Shown in pieces: positions 8,153 through 19,744 of a DNA stretch of 22,913 bases. The notes under the pieces were generated by a model, which was not told where the DNA came from, did no database searches, and was given only the letters and a program-made list of their open reading frames with translations. Numbering within the stretch: the stretch's first letter is position 1; every line of letters begins with the position of its first letter. Location of the stretch: the IMG/VR virus record IMGVR_UViG_3300048838_000329, positions 1-22,913 of that record, one strand, 5' to 3'. This stretch comes from a virus. Both the position numbers and the translations under genes were made by a program.

Positions 8153-8680
8153 TGTTTCCTCCTTCGTGTTGTCATTCTCGTTCTGAACATCTTCCGTGTC
8201 TGCGCCTGCAGGAACTTCGCTGAACTTAATAGAGGGCTGCCCCGGTATCTGGGGTCTATTAAGAATAGCCACGCTCCGCAGCACAGACTTGTACTTCTTT
8301 CCTGTCTCCGGGTGTAACCATTCCCAGAATATTTCCGGCGAGACGTACTTATATTTGCCACCTTTGAGGGCTTCCTGTCCGTCAGGATTCCACTCAGGAA
8401 TAGCAAAAAGGGCGGCATATGTTTTACCGTCCACCTTCGTCTCCCCGAGCTCTACAGACTTTATCCAGCCTGCAGGCTTGGTTTCGTCGTGATTAAAATC
8501 AAAGTATGCATCCAGGCCCAGCACATTGCTGTCGAAGTTTTCCTTCATCAATAGCAGGTCCGCCATGGTAATACCGCGCCTGTGAATGAAGTTTGCTTCC
8601 CTGGCGATCATTACGGGCTTGCCTTCTTTCAGACTCACATCGCTAAATAAGTAACCCTTTTCCGACATTAAAGGTTTCAT
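7532..8680 (-). CDS. Head maturation protease-scaffold (Mu gpI-like)
   Basis: A 382-residue protein. Residues 1-155 resemble the Mu-like prophage I protein protease: DAYFDFNHDETKPAGWIKSV (58-77) has the conserved NH..... .G segment, YVSPEI (112-117) the conserved YxSP, and SVAILNRPQIPG (136-147) the usual end of the domain. The conserved His and Ser are candidate catalytic residues, but this is not certain. Residues 177-382 are the Lys/Glu/Ala-rich scaffold, also made separately from an internal start. The protease would cut scaffold and capsid proteins during head maturation. Its start overlaps the portal stop by ATGA, giving coupled translation. Confidence 0.82.
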   Translation of the reverse strand: MKPLMSEKGYLFSDVSLKEGKPVMIAREANFIHRRGITMADLLLMKENFDSNVLGLDAYFDFNHDETKPAGWIKSVELGETKVDGKTYAALFAIPEWNPDGQEALKGGKYKYVSPEIFWEWLHPETGKKYKSVLRSVAILNRPQIPGQPSIKFSEVPAGADTEDVQNENDNTKEETMLKKLKEFAAKILGAKFGAEDVTEEQIVAAFEEKAKKDAEVAKLAADEAKKVADELADLKVKYTAIEGGSEGKFKEALEKIESKFNEKLEDMKKASFAEKVTALVEKAKMTKLTPAEADGWFKELCEKDLVIGEKTFASLPDKIKRTKPETEIDVNATPDDTKGVSAMREEMAKTRGVRFSEVPYREAYDAFYDKKSRESQKKEGE

Positions 8681-10944
8681 GCTGCCTCCTTGAATTGCTG
8701 GCTTACCCTGGCCGCGTCCCCGGATATCACGAAACCGGTCCAGCTGCCAGCCGGGATTCCGTCACCCTTAGTTATTGGTACGAGTATTGACCGGCAATTG
8801 AAGTGATTCGGCGGGTCAAGCTTCGCGGATTCGTAATCATCTATTGCACGCGTCTTACCGTCCAGTTGCCGGCAGGTTTCCGTGGTATCATTGTCGATTA
8901 TGGATGAGTATTGGAAGCCTATAACCTCATCCGAGTCCTCCATCGCCTGTTTACGGCCGGTATTTATGGCGATAGGTATAATTGATGAGCCGTTAAGATT
9001 GGATACATTGGCAAGCCACTCATCGCCTGTAATCTTGGCCGCCCGGAGCACTTCATCCAACTGCTCAGGATTTAGCTTTTTATTGACAGGGTAAAAGGAT
9101 GCCTTCGTAGTCGCGGACCCGCCGACTTTTTTTTCAATATCGGCGATTTTCTCATCGGATATCCTTTTTGCCTGATTCTTCACCCACGCAAACACGCCCG
9201 AAGGCAGTTTCATTTCTTCGCCCGCTGCCATTGTGGCCGTAATCTGCAGTTCGTTATCTATCTGCACCTTGCCGGCCATGACAACCTTTTTAATCTGGTC
9301 CTGCATAAGTTTCTCGAATACCGCACGTCCGGGCACGTCAAGGTCGTTTACCACATTGAATATATTGCCGCCGTCTTTGAGCGTCCTCTTTCTCAGCTCA
9401 TAGACGTAGTCCTCAATCATCTTTCCAAGAGCTTTCTTTTGTTCGTAGTTAAAATCTTCAATGCCGAACTGGATATCCCTGCCTATGACCGCGAAGTCGC
9501 ACTTCTGCTCGTATATGGTCCTCGTCCTGTTCTCAAAAGTGGGGTTTGAGCTCATTTTCGCGGCCTTCTCTGCTTTAACCTTTTCTTCTATAACCTTCTT
9601 CATGTCCTCAGCTTTTTTAGCTTCATCTTCTGTTTTGTGTTCTGCGGCTTTTCCGGCTTCCTTTACCGGGTCAGGCTGATTCCGGGCGGGATCCTCTTTG
9701 CGTTCGCTGTCTTTCTCTGCCGGCGGCGGGGTAAGGTCAATAACCCTGCGTAATTGTTTTTCAAGGCTCAAATCCGGCAGGATAAGCTTCCCGTCCGCGA
9801 ACATTTTAATTACACGGGCCCATTCCTCAAGGCCCTTCTGCTCGACACCGGTCACGTTTAGCTTCGCGCCCTTGCCTGGCTTTACAGTGCCATGATTACG
9901 CCGTATATATTCAGGCACGTACATCCTGTTGATCTCATCTATCAGCTGCCATATAACGTAGGACATCGACTGCAGGAAGTTTTTTCGCTTGCTATCGCCG
10001 AGCATCCTGTTACCGCCGCCATCCCTGCCCAGCATTAAAAAATCAGCCAGGACAACGTATGTCATATCCGTATTTTCTGCCTGGATAACCTGCTGTAGTT
10101 TCTCGGGATCAAAAGGAATCTGCTGTAGTGTAAGTGTCGTGCCTTCAGGCCGCAGTCCGTATTGATTCTGCGAGCTGGTTATATTTTTAAGATATGTTTT
10201 GAGGGCTTCGTATTCCGTACTTCCTTCTTTCCATTCCGCCGGGTATGTGACATCGGGCCAGCCAAGCGCGGACCTGCCAATGCCCACTATCTTGATTTTC
10301 TGCATATGCTTTTTGCGGAGATAGTTTCCATATGCGCGCCGGAAGGGCGAGATACCCGCGAAGTTCAGGCCTTCTTTCTCAATAGCCAGATACATGAGCT
10401 TATTTACATCAATCCAGCCGTTAAAAGGCCTGTCAGACATCTGGGTCTGCATGTAGATGTGCGTGAGACGTTCCCTTTCATCCATGCCCCACTTCTCAAT
10501 TATCCTCGGGCTGTACCAGGCGAAGTCGTCATATATCCAGCGTGTTTTACCCTCGTACTGCTTGACAGCTGTTATTGGCGCCGATACATAATGCCCGAAA
10601 AGCATTATTGTCAGGTACTCGTCTATCAGTTCACTCCAGCGCTTATGGGGAGCGTCAAAGAACGCCCATTCAAGTTCCTTTGCCATGGCCACAGAATCCG
10701 GATCCTCGGGGTTATCCGGGTCAAAGGTATATGTTCCTCCCTGTATCGCCGTCCTTATGGCCGTGTATATGCCGCCTATGACTTCATCGGAACGCCGCAT
10801 TTCTTCGATTATCGCGGCCCACTTATTACCCTGAAGCGCGTCTATGTGCTCTTCAAAGAGATACCCGCCGAACATCAGCGTGCCAGCGGATCCTGTTTTC
10901 TCAGTGCTGTCTGTCCGTCGTATCTCAATACCCTTTTTAGCCAT
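8677..10944 (-). CDS. Portal protein fused to MuF-type head morphogenesis domain
   Basis: A 755-residue protein. Residues 1-405 look like a DUF935 (Mu gp29-like) portal: RRSDEVIGGIYTAIRTAIQG (50-69) and NTDMTYVVLADFLMLGRDGG (291-310), then the stem/clip region. Residues 408-465 form a charged Lys/Glu linker. Residues 480-755 resemble Mu gpF: T.T..CRQLDGKTR at 691 and PPNHFNCRS (711-719) are the hallmark MuF elements. Portals form the DNA entry ring of the capsid; MuF proteins are minor head components. In Mu they are separate genes, here one chain. The start overlaps the terminase stop (TAATG). I found no internal ribosome site that would release the MuF part, but a proteolytic cut cannot be excluded. 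Confidence 0.85.
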   Translation of the reverse strand: MAKKGIEIRRTDSTEKTGSAGTLMFGGYLFEEHIDALQGNKWAAIIEEMRRSDEVIGGIYTAIRTAIQGGTYTFDPDNPEDPDSVAMAKELEWAFFDAPHKRWSELIDEYLTIMLFGHYVSAPITAVKQYEGKTRWIYDDFAWYSPRIIEKWGMDERERLTHIYMQTQMSDRPFNGWIDVNKLMYLAIEKEGLNFAGISPFRRAYGNYLRKKHMQKIKIVGIGRSALGWPDVTYPAEWKEGSTEYEALKTYLKNITSSQNQYGLRPEGTTLTLQQIPFDPEKLQQVIQAENTDMTYVVLADFLMLGRDGGGNRMLGDSKRKNFLQSMSYVIWQLIDEINRMYVPEYIRRNHGTVKPGKGAKLNVTGVEQKGLEEWARVIKMFADGKLILPDLSLEKQLRRVIDLTPPPAEKDSERKEDPARNQPDPVKEAGKAAEHKTEDEAKKAEDMKKVIEEKVKAEKAAKMSSNPTFENRTRTIYEQKCDFAVIGRDIQFGIEDFNYEQKKALGKMIEDYVYELRKRTLKDGGNIFNVVNDLDVPGRAVFEKLMQDQIKKVVMAGKVQIDNELQITATMAAGEEMKLPSGVFAWVKNQAKRISDEKIADIEKKVGGSATTKASFYPVNKKLNPEQLDEVLRAAKITGDEWLANVSNLNGSSIIPIAINTGRKQAMEDSDEVIGFQYSSIIDNDTTETCRQLDGKTRAIDDYESAKLDPPNHFNCRSILVPITKGDGIPAGSWTGFVISGDAARVSQQFKEAA

Positions 10945-12722
10945 TAGTACTCATCCCTTTCATCGTCGTCAGACGGCGGCGGTGGTATATTTTTGCTGAC
11001 TGGCCTGTTCTTTTCGCTCATGGTTCTGTTTGCCTGCGTGATTGCGTCTTTCATCCTGTCCGAGCCGTCCTTTAAGTGCCTGGCTTTGTTGGCCAGCATA
11101 AGCGCGTCAAACTCGTCCGGGCTCTCTCCGCTGTGCCTGGCTTTATATGCGTCCTTGGCCTCAAGCATGTGGCGCTTTTTGCCGTCCTGTGTTTTTAGCC
11201 GGTCCGTGAGCTGGTTCTGCAGGTCATCGTCTGGTTCGAGCAGGATTCCTTCGCTTGACATGATGTCCTCCGAGAGTTCAATGGCCATTTCGGCTATGAT
11301 GTCATGGTAGATTTCTTCCTTTTCTTCCGTGCTCGCCTTCTGCGCGAAGTTCAGACGTATTATTTTTACGAACTTGGAATTGAGGTTTTTGTTCATGAGG
11401 TGTTCATAGACGCTGTCTCCAAACCCGCCTGTTACGTCTATGACTATGAATACCAGCCGCTCAGGGTTCGGAACTACAATCATGCTGTAGATGTAATCCG
11501 CGACATACTTGCCGTCCTCTTTAAGCTTGGTGCCTTTATAGTCAAGGTTGCTTTTCTCGTACGTCTTGGCAAATACCTTCTTGTGATATTCCCGGTTGCC
11601 TTCCAGCACATGGATAACGCGCTTATCAGTACCCTGCCCGGAGCAGTCAACGCCGACATACAGGTTCTTTATGCCGTTCCACTTCGCGTATCCGCGCTCT
11701 TCTGCCGTCCAGCAGCGCTTGCCCTCCGCGTCCATGTAGCTTCCAGGCATGATCTCAATGGCGCGTTCAAAGGGAATAAGCGTATTTTCCGTGCGGTCCG
11801 TCCATTCCCCGATCGCCTTGGATAGGAACAGCTGGCTCTCTCCCCACTTGATGTAGCATTTCATTACCCAGCCGGGGGAAAGCAGGTGTCTATTCACGAT
11901 TTTATAGTGTTTGTTGTCGTAATATTCCTTGCGTTTATCCCTCGGCAGTATCCTTATCTTTTCGCCTTCCCTGCGTATGGCTTCGATTGAGGTTAAGGCG
12001 TTCGCTATCATGTTCGGGGCCTGATATGCTTTTTTATGTATGACTACATAACCTTCCCCCTCGTCCGTCAGACACATCTTGCCGAACCTGCTTGATTTTA
12101 CGAGGGGATTACCTATGTAGATTACGTAAACATCTCCGGGCGTGTTGGTTATGTGCTCCACCTGGTCAAATATCTGGTCTTCCAGGGCGCCGGCCTCATC
12201 ACCCACGACTATGATCACAGTGGCATGGCTCCCTGACAGGTATTGAGGCGTGTCCGATCCCTTAGCTGACTTTCTGGGCGATATCCCCACGGCAAAGGTC
12301 TTTGTATCGATATCGTACCTGGTAAGGGTCATTTTGCCGTCTAGGATGATTTCCTCGCGGTTTGCTTTTGAATGTATATCGCGCATTTCCTTCCAGAATA
12401 TATCCCTGACCTGCCTGAATGTAGGAGCCAGAGTGTGCGCTTCGCACTCTTCGACGTTCAGATTCATGATTGTCAGGACAGCCAGCGCTGATATAAAAGA
12501 CTTTCCGAACGCGAAGTGAGTGGGCACCAAAACTTTCTTATGTTTGAATATGCCTTCCAGTACATCCCTTTGCCCTTCTTCAAGATCAATACCAAGCTTG
12601 GGCAGGATGATCTGGTCAACGAACTTCATGGGGTGCTTTTTGAAATGCCGGCGGGCCAGTATCTTTTCTTGCAACGTCAGGTCCTGAAACGTGACTTTCT
12701 CCGGAGCGCAAGCAGTTGTCAT
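10944..12722 (-). CDS. Terminase large subunit
   Basis: A 592-residue DNA-packaging motor. The ATPase half carries a Walker A variant, PTHFAFGKS (67-75), and a Walker B VIIVVGDEA (169-177) with Asp175 and catalytic Glu176. The nuclease half has acidic residues in the right order: YVGVDCSGQGTD (Asp359), FIVIDVTGGFGDS (Asp429) and SPDEFDAL (Asp536/Asp539), an RNase H-like fold. Length is usual. The very C-terminus (PPPPSDDDERDEY) is acidic and Pro-rich and may bind the portal. It pumps DNA into the prohead and cuts concatemers. It overlaps the small subunit by ATGA and the portal by TAATG. Confidence 0.93.
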   Translation of the reverse strand: MTTACAPEKVTFQDLTLQEKILARRHFKKHPMKFVDQIILPKLGIDLEEGQRDVLEGIFKHKKVLVPTHFAFGKSFISALAVLTIMNLNVEECEAHTLAPTFRQVRDIFWKEMRDIHSKANREEIILDGKMTLTRYDIDTKTFAVGISPRKSAKGSDTPQYLSGSHATVIIVVGDEAGALEDQIFDQVEHITNTPGDVYVIYIGNPLVKSSRFGKMCLTDEGEGYVVIHKKAYQAPNMIANALTSIEAIRREGEKIRILPRDKRKEYYDNKHYKIVNRHLLSPGWVMKCYIKWGESQLFLSKAIGEWTDRTENTLIPFERAIEIMPGSYMDAEGKRCWTAEERGYAKWNGIKNLYVGVDCSGQGTDKRVIHVLEGNREYHKKVFAKTYEKSNLDYKGTKLKEDGKYVADYIYSMIVVPNPERLVFIVIDVTGGFGDSVYEHLMNKNLNSKFVKIIRLNFAQKASTEEKEEIYHDIIAEMAIELSEDIMSSEGILLEPDDDLQNQLTDRLKTQDGKKRHMLEAKDAYKARHSGESPDEFDALMLANKARHLKDGSDRMKDAITQANRTMSEKNRPVSKNIPPPPSDDDERDEY

Positions 12723-13261
12723 TTTTCGCCCTCCGCTTCTGCCTTTGCAGCTTCCCGGAACGCGGCCGCGACAGACCCCTCGGTTACTATTTTGTCCTTG
12801 ATATCCCCACCACCCAGCTGAACAAGGCGTTCACAAGCCTTTTCATGCGGCAGTATGTGCTCTATGGTTTCTTCAAGCAGGCCTTTCTTTCTGTTCTTAC
12901 CCCTGCCGTGATAGCCGAATGTCTTCTTTGTCGTGTCACAACCCTCAGCCAGCTTTAAAAGGCCCCTCATGCCCACATCCAGGAGCAGATGCTTGTACTG
13001 ACGCTTTTCTTTGTCAACCGCTTCCCAGAATCCCTTTATATTCACATAGTTATGCAGGGTATTTACGGACCTAGCAGAGAGTCCATGCTTTACGCAGAAC
13101 TGCGCTTCACTCTGACAGTCTTCCGGCATTATCTTGCCTACGAGGCCCATTTCACGGACAGCAACGTAAACAATGTAATCTTTGACTATGGCCGTATCGA
13201 GAGTATATGCTTTTGGGTTTTTTGTGGCCGGCTTCGTGCGGGTGTTTCTTTTCTTACCCAT
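12719..13261 (-). CDS. Terminase small subunit (probable)
   Basis: A 180-residue protein just before the large terminase gene, overlapping it by ATGA. The N-terminus is strongly basic (MGKKRNTRTKPATKNPKAYT). The segment SEAQFCVKHGLSARSVNTLH (about 51-70) looks like a helix-turn-helix of the terminase small subunit kind (a..fc...gis..tl..w), which recognises the packaging site. The rest is helical, suited to an oligomeric ring, and residues 105-130 are basic. Translation begins at an ATG with CCGGGAGG in front. That ribosome site lies in the hairpin at 13267-13308, so the gene may be under translational control. Confidence 0.78.
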   Translation of the reverse strand: MGKKRNTRTKPATKNPKAYTLDTAIVKDYIVYVAVREMGLVGKIMPEDCQSEAQFCVKHGLSARSVNTLHNYVNIKGFWEAVDKEKRQYKHLLLDVGMRGLLKLAEGCDTTKKTFGYHGRGKNRKKGLLEETIEHILPHEKACERLVQLGGGDIKDKIVTEGSVAAAFREAAKAEAEGEK

Positions 13262-13266
13262 TGTAC

Positions 13267-13308
13267 CTCCCGGAGAATATAAGCAAAATTTTTCTTGCTT
13301 GCCGGGAG
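13267..13308 (-). promoter_or_regulatory. Hairpin hiding the terminase ribosome site in read-through mRNA
   Basis: On the minus strand CTCCCGG (13308-13302) pairs with CCGGGAG (13273-13267), which contains the GGGAG of the small terminase ribosome site. Inside is a second stem, AAGCAA with TTGCTT (13300-13295, 13286-13281), loop of 8 bases. A transcript starting at the nearby promoter begins close to base 13300, so it would lack the outer 5' arm and leave the site free but keep the inner stem at its 5' end. Confidence 0.7.
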
Positions 13309-13335
13309 TATAGAGATTTAAAACAGACTTGTCAA
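13307..13335 (-). promoter_or_regulatory. Sigma-70 type promoter for terminase and structural operon
   Basis: TTGACA (13335-13330) and TATACT (13312-13307), 17 bases apart: a perfect -35 and a 5/6 match to the -10. Transcription should begin near 13300, about 39 bases before the small terminase start codon. It lies in the AT-rich gap after the moron region. It is the strongest promoter-like sequence I found and probably drives the head and tail genes. Confidence 0.82.
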
Positions 13336-13344
13336 AAAGTAGTG

Positions 13345-13361
13345 TCTATCAATTTGATAGA
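13345..13361. promoter_or_regulatory. Perfect 17-bp palindrome, candidate operator
   Basis: TCTATCAA-T-TTGATAGA: 8-bp arms with one central base, ending 9 bases upstream of the -35 element. The centre is about 53 bases before the predicted transcription start, where activators commonly bind; a repressor is also possible. A T-rich stretch follows on the plus strand, but the AT-rich stem argues against a terminator. I saw no second copy in the window. Confidence 0.55.
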
Positions 13362-13390
13362 TTTTTTATTTTGAATTGATTGAATAAGGC

Positions 13391-13537
13391 TTATTTTATT
13401 GAATTATACCGAGAGTGAGGATTATTTCTTTTTAAACACAGAATTTGGTTCATCGCAACGGCTAAAACGTCATTCATGATAAATATATCCGCTACAAAGA
13501 ATAAGAAAGAGATTGCCAGAAGCGTTATTTTCTTCAT
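13391..13537 (-). CDS. Possible 48-residue membrane peptide
   Basis: A short frame beginning MKKITLLAISFLFFVADIFI, with one hydrophobic segment (residues 4-27) and a basic end (LKRNNPHSRYNSIK). It starts 20 bases after the lipoprotein stop, with GGCGGGG just ahead of the ATG, a usable but not ideal ribosome site. It could be a small inner-membrane protein, or a poor signal peptide, co-transcribed with the lipoprotein. The low GC makes chance frames more likely, so confidence is limited. Confidence 0.45.
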   Translation of the reverse strand: MKKITLLAISFLFFVADIFIMNDVLAVAMNQILCLKRNNPHSRYNSIK

Positions 13538-13556: not shown

Positions 13557-13946
13557 TTACCGGGACGTATAGCTGGTTTCTGTGCATATATTATACGGCG
13601 TAATTGATGTTCCCCATCCTTCCGGGGTTAAAAAACTATCCTCAGAAACAAGCACAGAACCGTCGTATATTCCAACATCTATTCCACATACTCCCTCCGG
13701 AGGATTTATTGAGCACAATTTGATGCTTATTTCTTTTGCTTCCACAAAATCGTATTTTATCATCCCCAATGGTCCGTTAAAGTATATGTCTGTTTTCTGT
13801 CCGTCAACCGTGATTGTTGCTAGAACAGACGCGTCGCCATTAACATAACCTTCCACCCTTCCAGAAGAAGTTTTACTGCAGGCCGTTACTGAGACAAATA
13901 CAAGAACCCAAACAAACAGAAACGACACCTTAGTCTTGATTTTCAT
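13557..13946 (-). CDS. Small lipoprotein, moron-like gene
   Basis: A 129-residue protein with a lipoprotein signal peptide: MKIKTK, hydrophobic residues 7-20, then a lipobox VTAC with Cys23. Ser at +2 predicts outer-membrane sorting in diderm bacteria. The mature part is beta-rich, with three further Cys (in LCSIN, GVCGI and NICTE) that could form a disulfide, and no recognised domain. It has its own promoter (13979-14007), a strong AGGGAGGA ribosome site, and lower GC than its neighbours (25/60 and 21/60 in two sampled rows). These are moron features. By analogy with phage lipoproteins such as T5 Llp and lambda Bor, it may block superinfection or alter the host surface; that is inference. 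Confidence 0.8.
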   Translation of the reverse strand: MKIKTKVSFLFVWVLVFVSVTACSKTSSGRVEGYVNGDASVLATITVDGQKTDIYFNGPLGMIKYDFVEAKEISIKLCSINPPEGVCGIDVGIYDGSVLVSEDSFLTPEGWGTSITPYNICTETSYTSR

Positions 13947-18586: not shown

Positions 18587-19218
18587 CTCACTCCTCCTTT
18601 TATGCTGTTTTTATAGTAAACGTTCGGATGTTTTATGCTGTCTATCCACTCCTGCTTGACTGACACCGCGCCCGACCCGGACATGGCGCCTACGATAATA
18701 CGGTCAAACGCTTTTTCTAAAGGGAACACAGGGTTGCTAATTTTTCCAAGAAGCGGCTCCGCGCTGCAAAAAGTCTGAAAGTGTTCGTCACGTTTTAGAT
18801 AACACATTGCCCGCTGACGCCCTATATCCGTAGCGGTTATCGTACAGCCCAGCCACACGCTCAGGCCCTCAAACGAAAACTCGCTGTACCTCTCCGGGTT
18901 TTTGGTAAGAAAAATATAAACATGCTGTGGAGCACACTTACAGGCCACGAGAACCTTTTCAATCCACTTCTTCGATACCCACTCACCCCACATATCGGCC
19001 ATACTCCCGACAAATATATGCAAGGGATTTTTATGTTCGTGCGGCTCATCCAGCCTGTCGGCATGGATCGTCGGCTTGAAGCCGGGTCCGCCATAATTAT
19101 CAGGGAACCTGTTCGCTATCTTGCGGGCATAACAGTAAAAACATTCATTCTCACAACCCGTTATTGGGTTCCATGTCCACAACGGCTTCCACGGCCAATC
19201 AATTTTAGTTCTGTTCAT
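18583..19218 (-). CDS. DUF5131 / phage Gp37-Gp68 family protein
   Basis: A 211-residue protein starting MNRTKIDWPWKPLWTWNPIT. Residues 20-32 are TGCENECFYCYAR: Cys22, Cys26 and Cys29 in CX3CX2C, the iron-sulfur motif of radical SAM proteins and of the DUF5131 family. Further family marks: the IFVGSMADMWGEW stretch (68-80) and IFLTKNPERY (102-111). The Fe-S cluster is likely, but the substrate is unknown; DUF5131 proteins occur in phages and in defence or repair contexts, often with a TcmP partner, which I do not see here. The gene overlaps the transglycosylase gene by 14 bases and the next gene by GTGA. Confidence 0.82.
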   Translation of the reverse strand: MNRTKIDWPWKPLWTWNPITGCENECFYCYARKIANRFPDNYGGPGFKPTIHADRLDEPHEHKNPLHIFVGSMADMWGEWVSKKWIEKVLVACKCAPQHVYIFLTKNPERYSEFSFEGLSVWLGCTITATDIGRQRAMCYLKRDEHFQTFCSAEPLLGKISNPVFPLEKAFDRIIVGAMSGSGAVSVKQEWIDSIKHPNVYYKNSIKGGVR

Positions 19219-19744
19219 AACTCACCTCACACCCGAAATCAGGAAAATATATTCTGTATGTTTTCAGTACCTTCTCAAGGTACCCGTAATTCCCTGACAC
19301 GCAGTCACCGGCGTTATACGCCATGATAACCTTGCAGATATCGTTGTCATAAACATAGAGCAGCGTTTTTATGTGCCTGACCGCCCAGTATATTGCCTCG
19401 CGGTAATCCATAAGCGCGTCCGGCTCACCGCGAAAGCCCTCGCTGTACGCCATGGCATAAGATATCTGTGGTATGCTGTAAACGTAGAATCTGTGGACGG
19501 CTTCCCACTTCTTAAACACCATGTGCTTCTCAAGCAGCGAACTTTCAACCGTGAACAGTGATATCGCCAGTGCGGGCTGGACGCCCAGCTCCTCGCACAC
19601 GTCCGCCGTGTAGTCCACTATGCCGGGCCTTGTGTCCGGCTTCGGTGCATTAAAATCCATATAAAGCATAAATATAAGTGCAGCCACCGCCGTAACAAAA
19701 GCGGCAGCCGGGCTGATAACGCGATTATCAGCCTTTGTCTTCAT
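19205..19744 (-). CDS. Membrane-anchored lytic transglycosylase (candidate endolysin)
   Basis: A 179-residue protein. Residues 11-31 are a single N-terminal membrane segment (SPAAAFVTAVAALIFMLYMD) after a basic start, so the rest faces the periplasm or the wall. The SLT family marks are LFTVESSLLE with catalytic Glu67, AYNAGDC (142-148) and GNYGYLEKVL (151-160). It cuts peptidoglycan between MurNAc and GlcNAc. The short length and N-terminal helix, without cleavage site, recall signal-anchor-release endolysins. It is coupled by ATGA to the secreted protein gene upstream. Host lysis is most likely; a role in DNA entry is possible but tail genes are far away. Confidence 0.82.
   Translation of the reverse strand: MKTKADNRVISPAAAFVTAVAALIFMLYMDFNAPKPDTRPGIVDYTADVCEELGVQPALAISLFTVESSLLEKHMVFKKWEAVHRFYVYSIPQISYAMAYSEGFRGEPDALMDYREAIYWAVRHIKTLLYVYDNDICKVIMAYNAGDCVSGNYGYLEKVLKTYRIYFPDFGCEVSYEQN

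What the first reader, a model, noticed from the sequence alone, without database searches (positions are those of the whole stretch)
13262..13335. Promoter and ribosome-site hairpin overlap: possible promoter-dependent translation switch for the terminase operon
The -10 of a near-consensus promoter overlaps the first arm (CTCCCGG) of a hairpin whose second arm (CCGGGAG) contains the small terminase ribosome site. mRNA reading through from early or moron genes carries both arms and should hide the site. mRNA starting at the promoter near 13300 loses the first arm, keeps only a short 5' stem, and leaves the site free. Phage T4 gene e is a known case of this logic: early transcripts fold and block the site, late transcripts start inside. 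Here it would keep packaging proteins off until the late promoter fires. The sequence elements are seen; the switch is inferred.
Basis: partly seen in the sequence, partly recalled or inferred. Interest (0 to 1): 0.72.

Follow-up and report, generated by a model that had tools for sequence, protein, structure and literature searches.

The report
Terminase promoter overlapping ribosome-site-masking RNA hairpin
In an uncultivated phage, the promoter of the DNA-packaging (terminase) genes fires from inside an RNA hairpin that could hide the gene's ribosome site only on messages running in from upstream genes; the promoter and a hairpin at its start are shared with distant relatives, but the ribosome-site masking is seen in this phage alone and is untested.

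Summary
On the minus strand lie TTGACA-17-TATACT (13335-13307, 11/12), arm CTCCCGG (13308-13302), an inner hairpin starting at the predicted start site (13300-13281), arm CCGGGAG (13273-13267) over the Shine-Dalgarno GGGAGG (13271-13266), and the terS ATG (13261). The promoter is unlikely to be chance. Folding supports the claimed logic: read-through RNA masks the Shine-Dalgarno and promoter-initiated RNA mostly frees it, with a weaker contrast than T4 gene e at equal length. That contrast is in the top 1-4% of 359 phage genes: suggestive, not proof.

New here: of the close terL relatives found (about 47-53% identity), only two (L003, L040) keep the terS leader. Both have a promoter-like site at the same place and a stem-loop beginning at predicted +1, of unrelated sequence. 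In both it is an intrinsic terminator and does not mask the Shine-Dalgarno. The window lacks a minus-strand terminator there.

So the shared element is 'promoter plus +1 hairpin'; Shine-Dalgarno masking is specific to this phage. Best reading: shut-off of upstream read-through, by termination in relatives and by masking here. 'Late promoter' is not supported: it is a host-type near-consensus promoter. It works like T4 gene e, but is not proven to be one.

The parts
13307..13335 (-). Near-consensus sigma70-type promoter: TTGACA (13335-13330), 17-bp spacer, TATACT (13312-13307); predicted start A13300
   Evidence: a promoter-like site lies at the equivalent place in L003 and L040
13302..13308 (-). 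5' arm CTCCCGG (anti-SD arm); overlaps the last 2 nt of the -10 and the discriminator; absent from RNA started at 13300
13281..13300 (-). Inner stem-loop AAGCAAGA-AAAA-TTTTGCTT that begins at predicted +1 (5'-terminal hairpin of the promoter transcript)
   Evidence: a stem also begins at predicted +1 in L003 and L040 with unrelated sequence
13267..13273 (-). 3' arm CCGGGAG, pairs with the 5' arm and covers most of the SD
13266..13271 (-). Shine-Dalgarno GGGAGG of terS
12719..13261 (-). Small terminase (terS) gene, 180 aa; no direct profile hit, assigned by position before terL and 33% identity to the gene in the same place in L003; the gene in that place in L040 hits terminase-small-subunit PHROGs
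10944..12722 (-). Large terminase (terL), 592 aa; tblastn matches to annotated phage terminases
13391..13537 (-). Possible 48-aa membrane/signal-peptide ORF, last upstream ORF on the same strand; ends 129 nt before terS, so terS is not coupled to it
13557..13946 (-). Probable lipoprotein gene (N-terminus ...SVTACSK), candidate source of read-through RNA
   Evidence: no Pfam or PHROG hit

Best explanation
13335-13307 is the promoter of the terminase/head operon. Its RNA starts near A13300 with a 20-nt stem-loop at its 5' end, followed by a strong SD. The region doubles as a filter against RNA entering from upstream co-directional genes (replication region, ParB-like, lipoprotein): such RNA carries CTCCCGG, which closes the hairpin over the SD and reduces terS translation, while promoter-initiated RNA lacks that arm and is translated. 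In related phages the same position carries an intrinsic terminator hairpin beginning at the promoter start, which would stop the read-through RNA itself; this phage has no terminator there and masks the SD instead. Shown: the sequence elements, the promoter and hairpin statistics, the promoter-plus-+1-hairpin layout in 3 of 3 intact leaders, and predicted SD masking here only. Inferred: the start site, that read-through RNA exists, and that masking reduces translation. Not claimed: that the promoter is late-specific.
For: Promoter significance. SD opening cost 10.8 vs 2.9 kcal/mol with 20 nt of coding sequence, contrast matched or exceeded by 3 of 359 genes including itself; 7.3 vs 4.3 with 41 nt, 13 of 359. 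Only 5 of 359 genes have an anti-SD arm of 7 bp or more. Among about 30 terL relatives, promoter-like sites of >=10/12 about 40-60 nt before terS occur only in the window, L003 and L040. A stem of >=7 bp starts at predicted TSS+-1 in all three, against 3.9% at shifted control positions. L003 terminator 1406-1433; L040 hairpin GCAAAGAT...ATCTTTGC followed by CTTTTTTT from +1. No minus-strand terminator with a U tract between upstream genes and terS in the window. Same logic is established for T4 genes e, soc, 49 and I-TevI (PMC3014915).
Against: SD masking is not conserved. By the random-context test, 7.5-13% of upstream sequences mask this GC-rich SD as well as the real one. Promoter-initiated RNA still has an SD opening cost of 3-4 kcal/mol. 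In L003 and L040 the hairpin lies in the promoter's own transcript, so it might attenuate that too, which pure insulation does not need. No expression data; host unknown.
Confidence: 0.4

Rival explanations
1. A plain promoter plus a strong SD for the terminase operon; the CTCCCGG/CCGGGAG pairing is coincidence or too weak to matter.
For: Masking absent in both relatives; 1.4% of genes have such an arm, so about one per two or three windows is expected by chance; the SD is GC-rich and pairs readily with random context.
Against: The arm coincides with the single strongest promoter, with the start predicted between the arms; hairpin stability is in the top 1.1%.
Confidence: 0.27
2. Promoter-proximal hairpin control of elongation: a constitutive host-type promoter is followed at once by a terminator or pause hairpin, and a phage factor must let polymerase through, as in lambda pR'/tR' with Q. 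The SD pairing is secondary.
For: The near-consensus promoter alone cannot be late; in L003 and L040 an intrinsic terminator follows +1 directly; 3 of 3 leaders have the +1 hairpin.
Against: The window hairpin has no good U tract (tail ATATTCTCC); no Q-family (PF06530, PF03589, PF06323) hit among the upstream ORFs scanned; no antitermination signal identified.
Confidence: 0.15
3. The +1 stem-loop is an mRNA stabiliser (a 5'-terminal hairpin hindering 5'-end-dependent decay, as described for E. coli ompA-type leaders; own knowledge), conserved for that reason.
For: A hairpin starts at predicted +1 in 3 of 3 leaders with unrelated sequence.
Against: Does not explain the outer arm over the SD in the window or the U tracts in the relatives; not testable here.
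Confidence: 0.1
4. The inverted repeat is a DNA operator for a phage repressor or activator over the start site, giving the promoter its timing.
For: The dyad overlaps +1, a good repressor position; a near-consensus promoter would need such control to be late.
Against: The dyad has no second copy in the window above chance; the dyad sequence differs completely between relatives while RNA pairing persists.
Confidence: 0.08

Closest known systems
T4 gene e (lysozyme) leader, with T4 soc, 49 and I-TevI (PMC3014915)
   Same: SD sequestered in a helix on long upstream transcripts; promoter inside or next to the 5' arm so that shorter RNA lacks it; same folding calculation shows the effect (about 14 to 5.5 kcal/mol).
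   Different: T4 uses phage late promoters (TATAAATA, two in the gene e leader); here a host-type near-consensus promoter. Weaker contrast at equal length. T4's structure is predicted in several related phages; here it is absent in both relatives available.
Lambda-type late promoter controlled by Q antitermination (Q, Q21, Q82 families; PMC7171158)
   Same: Strong host-type promoter at the head of late genes, followed at once by a terminator-like hairpin in L003 and L040.
   Different: No U tract in the window, no Q-family protein found, terminator at about +30 (lambda's is about 190 nt downstream, own knowledge).
Translational-coupling hairpins (SD masked by the end of the upstream gene)
   Same: SD hidden in a hairpin with an upstream arm; an example in hand is L109 near 625-670.
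   Different: There the arm is inside the upstream gene and translation opens it; here the last upstream ORF ends 129 nt before terS and a promoter lies between.

Membership tests
T4 gene e-type read-through-masked leader | SD/start region paired on the long transcript | tested here: met
   Predicted only: opening cost 7-11 kcal/mol on read-through RNA
T4 gene e-type read-through-masked leader | Internal promoter whose transcript lacks the 5' arm and frees the SD | tested here: met
   Predicted start 13300 lies downstream of the arm; opening cost falls to 2.9-4.3 kcal/mol; start site not measured
T4 gene e-type read-through-masked leader | Internal promoter is of a late class | tested here: not met
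   TTGACA-17-TATACT is host sigma70-type; no other motif found
T4 gene e-type read-through-masked leader | Structure kept in related phages | tested here: not met
   L003 and L040 show no read-through-dependent SD masking; only two intact leaders, so weak
T4 gene e-type read-through-masked leader | Reduced translation of the long transcript | not testable with these tools
   Needs reporter or infection data
Lambda Q-type antiterminated late promoter | Terminator between promoter and late genes | tested here: not met
   Not met in the window; met in L003 and by eye in L040
Lambda Q-type antiterminated late promoter | Q-family antiterminator gene | tested here: not met
   No PF06530/PF03589/PF06323 hit among the upstream ORFs scanned; the record is a fragment
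5'-terminal stabilising stem-loop | Stem-loop within a few nt of the 5' end | tested here: met
   Stem begins at predicted +1 in 3 of 3 leaders
5'-terminal stabilising stem-loop | Longer mRNA half-life | not testable with these tools
   Needs decay measurements

The most novel reading that the evidence does not exclude
A phage clade carries a fixed module at the head of its packaging operon, a promoter whose start site sits in the 5' arm of a hairpin, and the hairpin's effect on read-through RNA has been exchanged in evolution between transcription termination (L003, L040) and ribosome-site masking (window). Termination and SD masking would be interchangeable outputs of one promoter-in-hairpin design.
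Probability: 0.2. Interest if true: 0.6.

Novelty: new member of a known kind. Interest (0 to 1): 0.42.

Why it matters
Packaging proteins made too early could cut replicating phage DNA. A leader that reads where its own transcript began would let a phage keep terminase off on read-through RNA without a dedicated regulator. The comparison suggests a related clade solves the same problem with a terminator at the same position, which would make the swap between two kinds of RNA control testable in small reporter constructs.

Tried and rejected
Close relatives by TerS alone: none. TerL in genome contigs: none, both scans. Leader-like DNA pattern in viral contigs: 2 hits, both inside an unrelated coding region. 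DNA similarity in phages: none. Rfam and tRNAs: none. A repeated operator dyad: no excess over chance. Distant terL relatives (22-33% identity): no promoter at the equivalent distance, used as background. L038, L005 and L008 are close relatives but their contigs end before the terS leader. Three intact leaders with unrelated hairpin sequences are too few for a covariation test or a covariance model. Archaeal host considered, because a Methanosarcinales virus gives the best terL E-value; set aside because DnaC-like, DnaD-like, RusA and ParB-like genes resemble bacterial phages, but the host stays unknown. Translational coupling rejected: 129-nt gap to the last upstream ORF.

Full report
CONTEXT. 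The window is a 22.9-kb linear IMG/VR record of a tailed phage. Nearly all likely genes lie on the minus strand: replication genes (DnaD/O-like, DnaC-like loader, RusA), a ParB-like protein, several unknown genes including a probable lipoprotein (13557-13946) and a possible 48-aa membrane ORF (13391-13537), then terS (12719-13261), terL (10944-12722), portal fused to a Mu-F-like domain (8677-10944), Mu-I-like protease, scaffold and capsid. TerL is confirmed by tblastn matches to annotated terminases. TerS has no direct profile hit; it is assigned by position, by 33% identity to the L003 gene in the same place, and because the gene in that place in L040 hits terminase-small-subunit families.

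OBSERVATION. The promoter is the only >=11/12 site in the window (0.25 expected) and appears in 0.7% of shuffles of the upstream region. The 42-nt hairpin folds at -16.8 kcal/mol, top 1.1% of its strand. A 7-bp or longer exact anti-SD arm occurs in 1.4% of 359 SD-bearing phage genes.

THE SWITCH IN SILICO. With 20 nt of coding sequence (about what exists when the first ribosome can load), opening the SD costs 10.8 kcal/mol on read-through RNA and 2.9 on RNA started at 13300; with 41 nt, 7.3 and 4.3, because CCGG of the SD region can re-pair with GCCGG in the gene. The contrast is matched or exceeded by 3 of 359 genes (20 nt) or 13 of 359 (41 nt), itself included. A harsher control, giving the same SD random upstream sequence, finds 7.5-13% as masked. 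For T4 gene e the same method (41 nt) gives about 14 falling to about 5.5 kcal/mol. The literature reports a 100-fold effect there, and the same logic for soc, 49 and I-TevI (PMC3014915). The window's switch is plausible but weaker.

RELATIVES. Scans with TerL and alignments gave a close group at about 47-53% identity (L002/L003, L005, L008, L038, L040) and many distant ones. Only L003 and L040 retain the terS leader. L003: TTTACA-17-TATAAA (1376-1404), then an intrinsic terminator AGCCTTGACAGG..CTTGTCAGGGCT-TTTATATTTT (1406-1433). L040: TTGACG-18-TATACT (733-762), then GCAAAGAT...ATCTTTGC-CTTTTTTT. In all three, counting seven nt from the -10, the first transcribed base is the first base of a stem-loop. 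Stems of >=7 bp at TSS+-1 occur at 3.9% of shifted control positions, so finding it in both L003 and L040 has a chance near 0.0015 if the promoters are right; I saw the layout before testing it, so this is a guide, not a formal p-value. Among about 28 more distant relatives none has a promoter-like site at that distance; the two other sites found sit 2-5 nt from the start codon. The hairpin sequences are unrelated, which points to structure or position rather than a DNA operator. SD masking does not differ between read-through and initiated RNA in L003 or L040.

READING. What is shared is a promoter whose start lies at the 5' arm of a hairpin, at the head of the packaging operon. In the relatives the hairpin is a terminator. 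In L003 the predicted start lies inside the terminator's 5' arm, so its own RNA lacks the lower stem next to the U tract; in L040 most of the stem stays in the promoter's own RNA, so attenuation is also possible. In the window there is no U-tract terminator on the minus strand before terS, and the extended stem covers the SD instead. The most economical account is shut-off of RNA arriving from upstream, by termination there and by SD masking here.

WHAT IS NOT SUPPORTED. 'Late promoter': a near-consensus host promoter should fire early unless repressed; nothing in the sequence makes it late. If terS is truly late, an extra control (repressor, or antitermination as in lambda Q) is needed; no Q-family gene was found among the upstream ORFs scanned. 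No transcript, host or expression data are available. Everything about regulation is inference from sequence.

VERDICT. Observation confirmed; interpretation partly supported. If real, a new member of a known kind (transcript-start-dependent masking of a ribosome site), with an unusual companion: the same position carries a terminator in relatives.

Noticed in passing
window 13344-13370 (+ strand): AT-rich stem-loop GTCTATCAATTTGATAGAT followed by TTTTTATTTT: a terminator-like site for plus-strand (antisense) RNA just upstream of the terS promoter; no plus-strand gene is evident.
   Followed up: partly
window 13557-13946 (-): Probable lipoprotein gene (MKIKTKVSFLFVWVLVFVSVTACSK...), preceded by a promoter-like site TTGACA-18-AAAAAT at 14007-13978; a moron candidate between the early region and the packaging genes.
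   Followed up: partly
window 13391-13537 (-): 48-aa ORF with a hydrophobic N-terminus (MKKITLLAISFLFFVADIF...) between the lipoprotein gene and the terS promoter; no convincing family hit.
   Followed up: partly
window 19205-19744 (-): Protein with a weak transglycosylase SLT domain (PF01464) inside the replication/early region, an odd place for a wall-degrading enzyme.
   Followed up: no
window 8677-10944 (-): Single 755-aa protein joins a portal domain (phrog_113) and a Mu F-like/minor head domain (PF04233); the same fused length class is seen in L038 and L040.
   Followed up: partly
L109 625-670: TTCCCTCC(T) / (A)GGAGGGAA arms inside the upstream gene mask an SD strongly (18 vs 5 kcal/mol), with no promoter between: looks like a translational-coupling hairpin.
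   Followed up: partly
all loci: Promoter-like sites (>=10/12) have a stem of 7 bp or more starting at predicted +1 in 11 of 83 cases against 3.9% at shifted positions; 5'-terminal hairpins may be common in these phages.
   Followed up: partly
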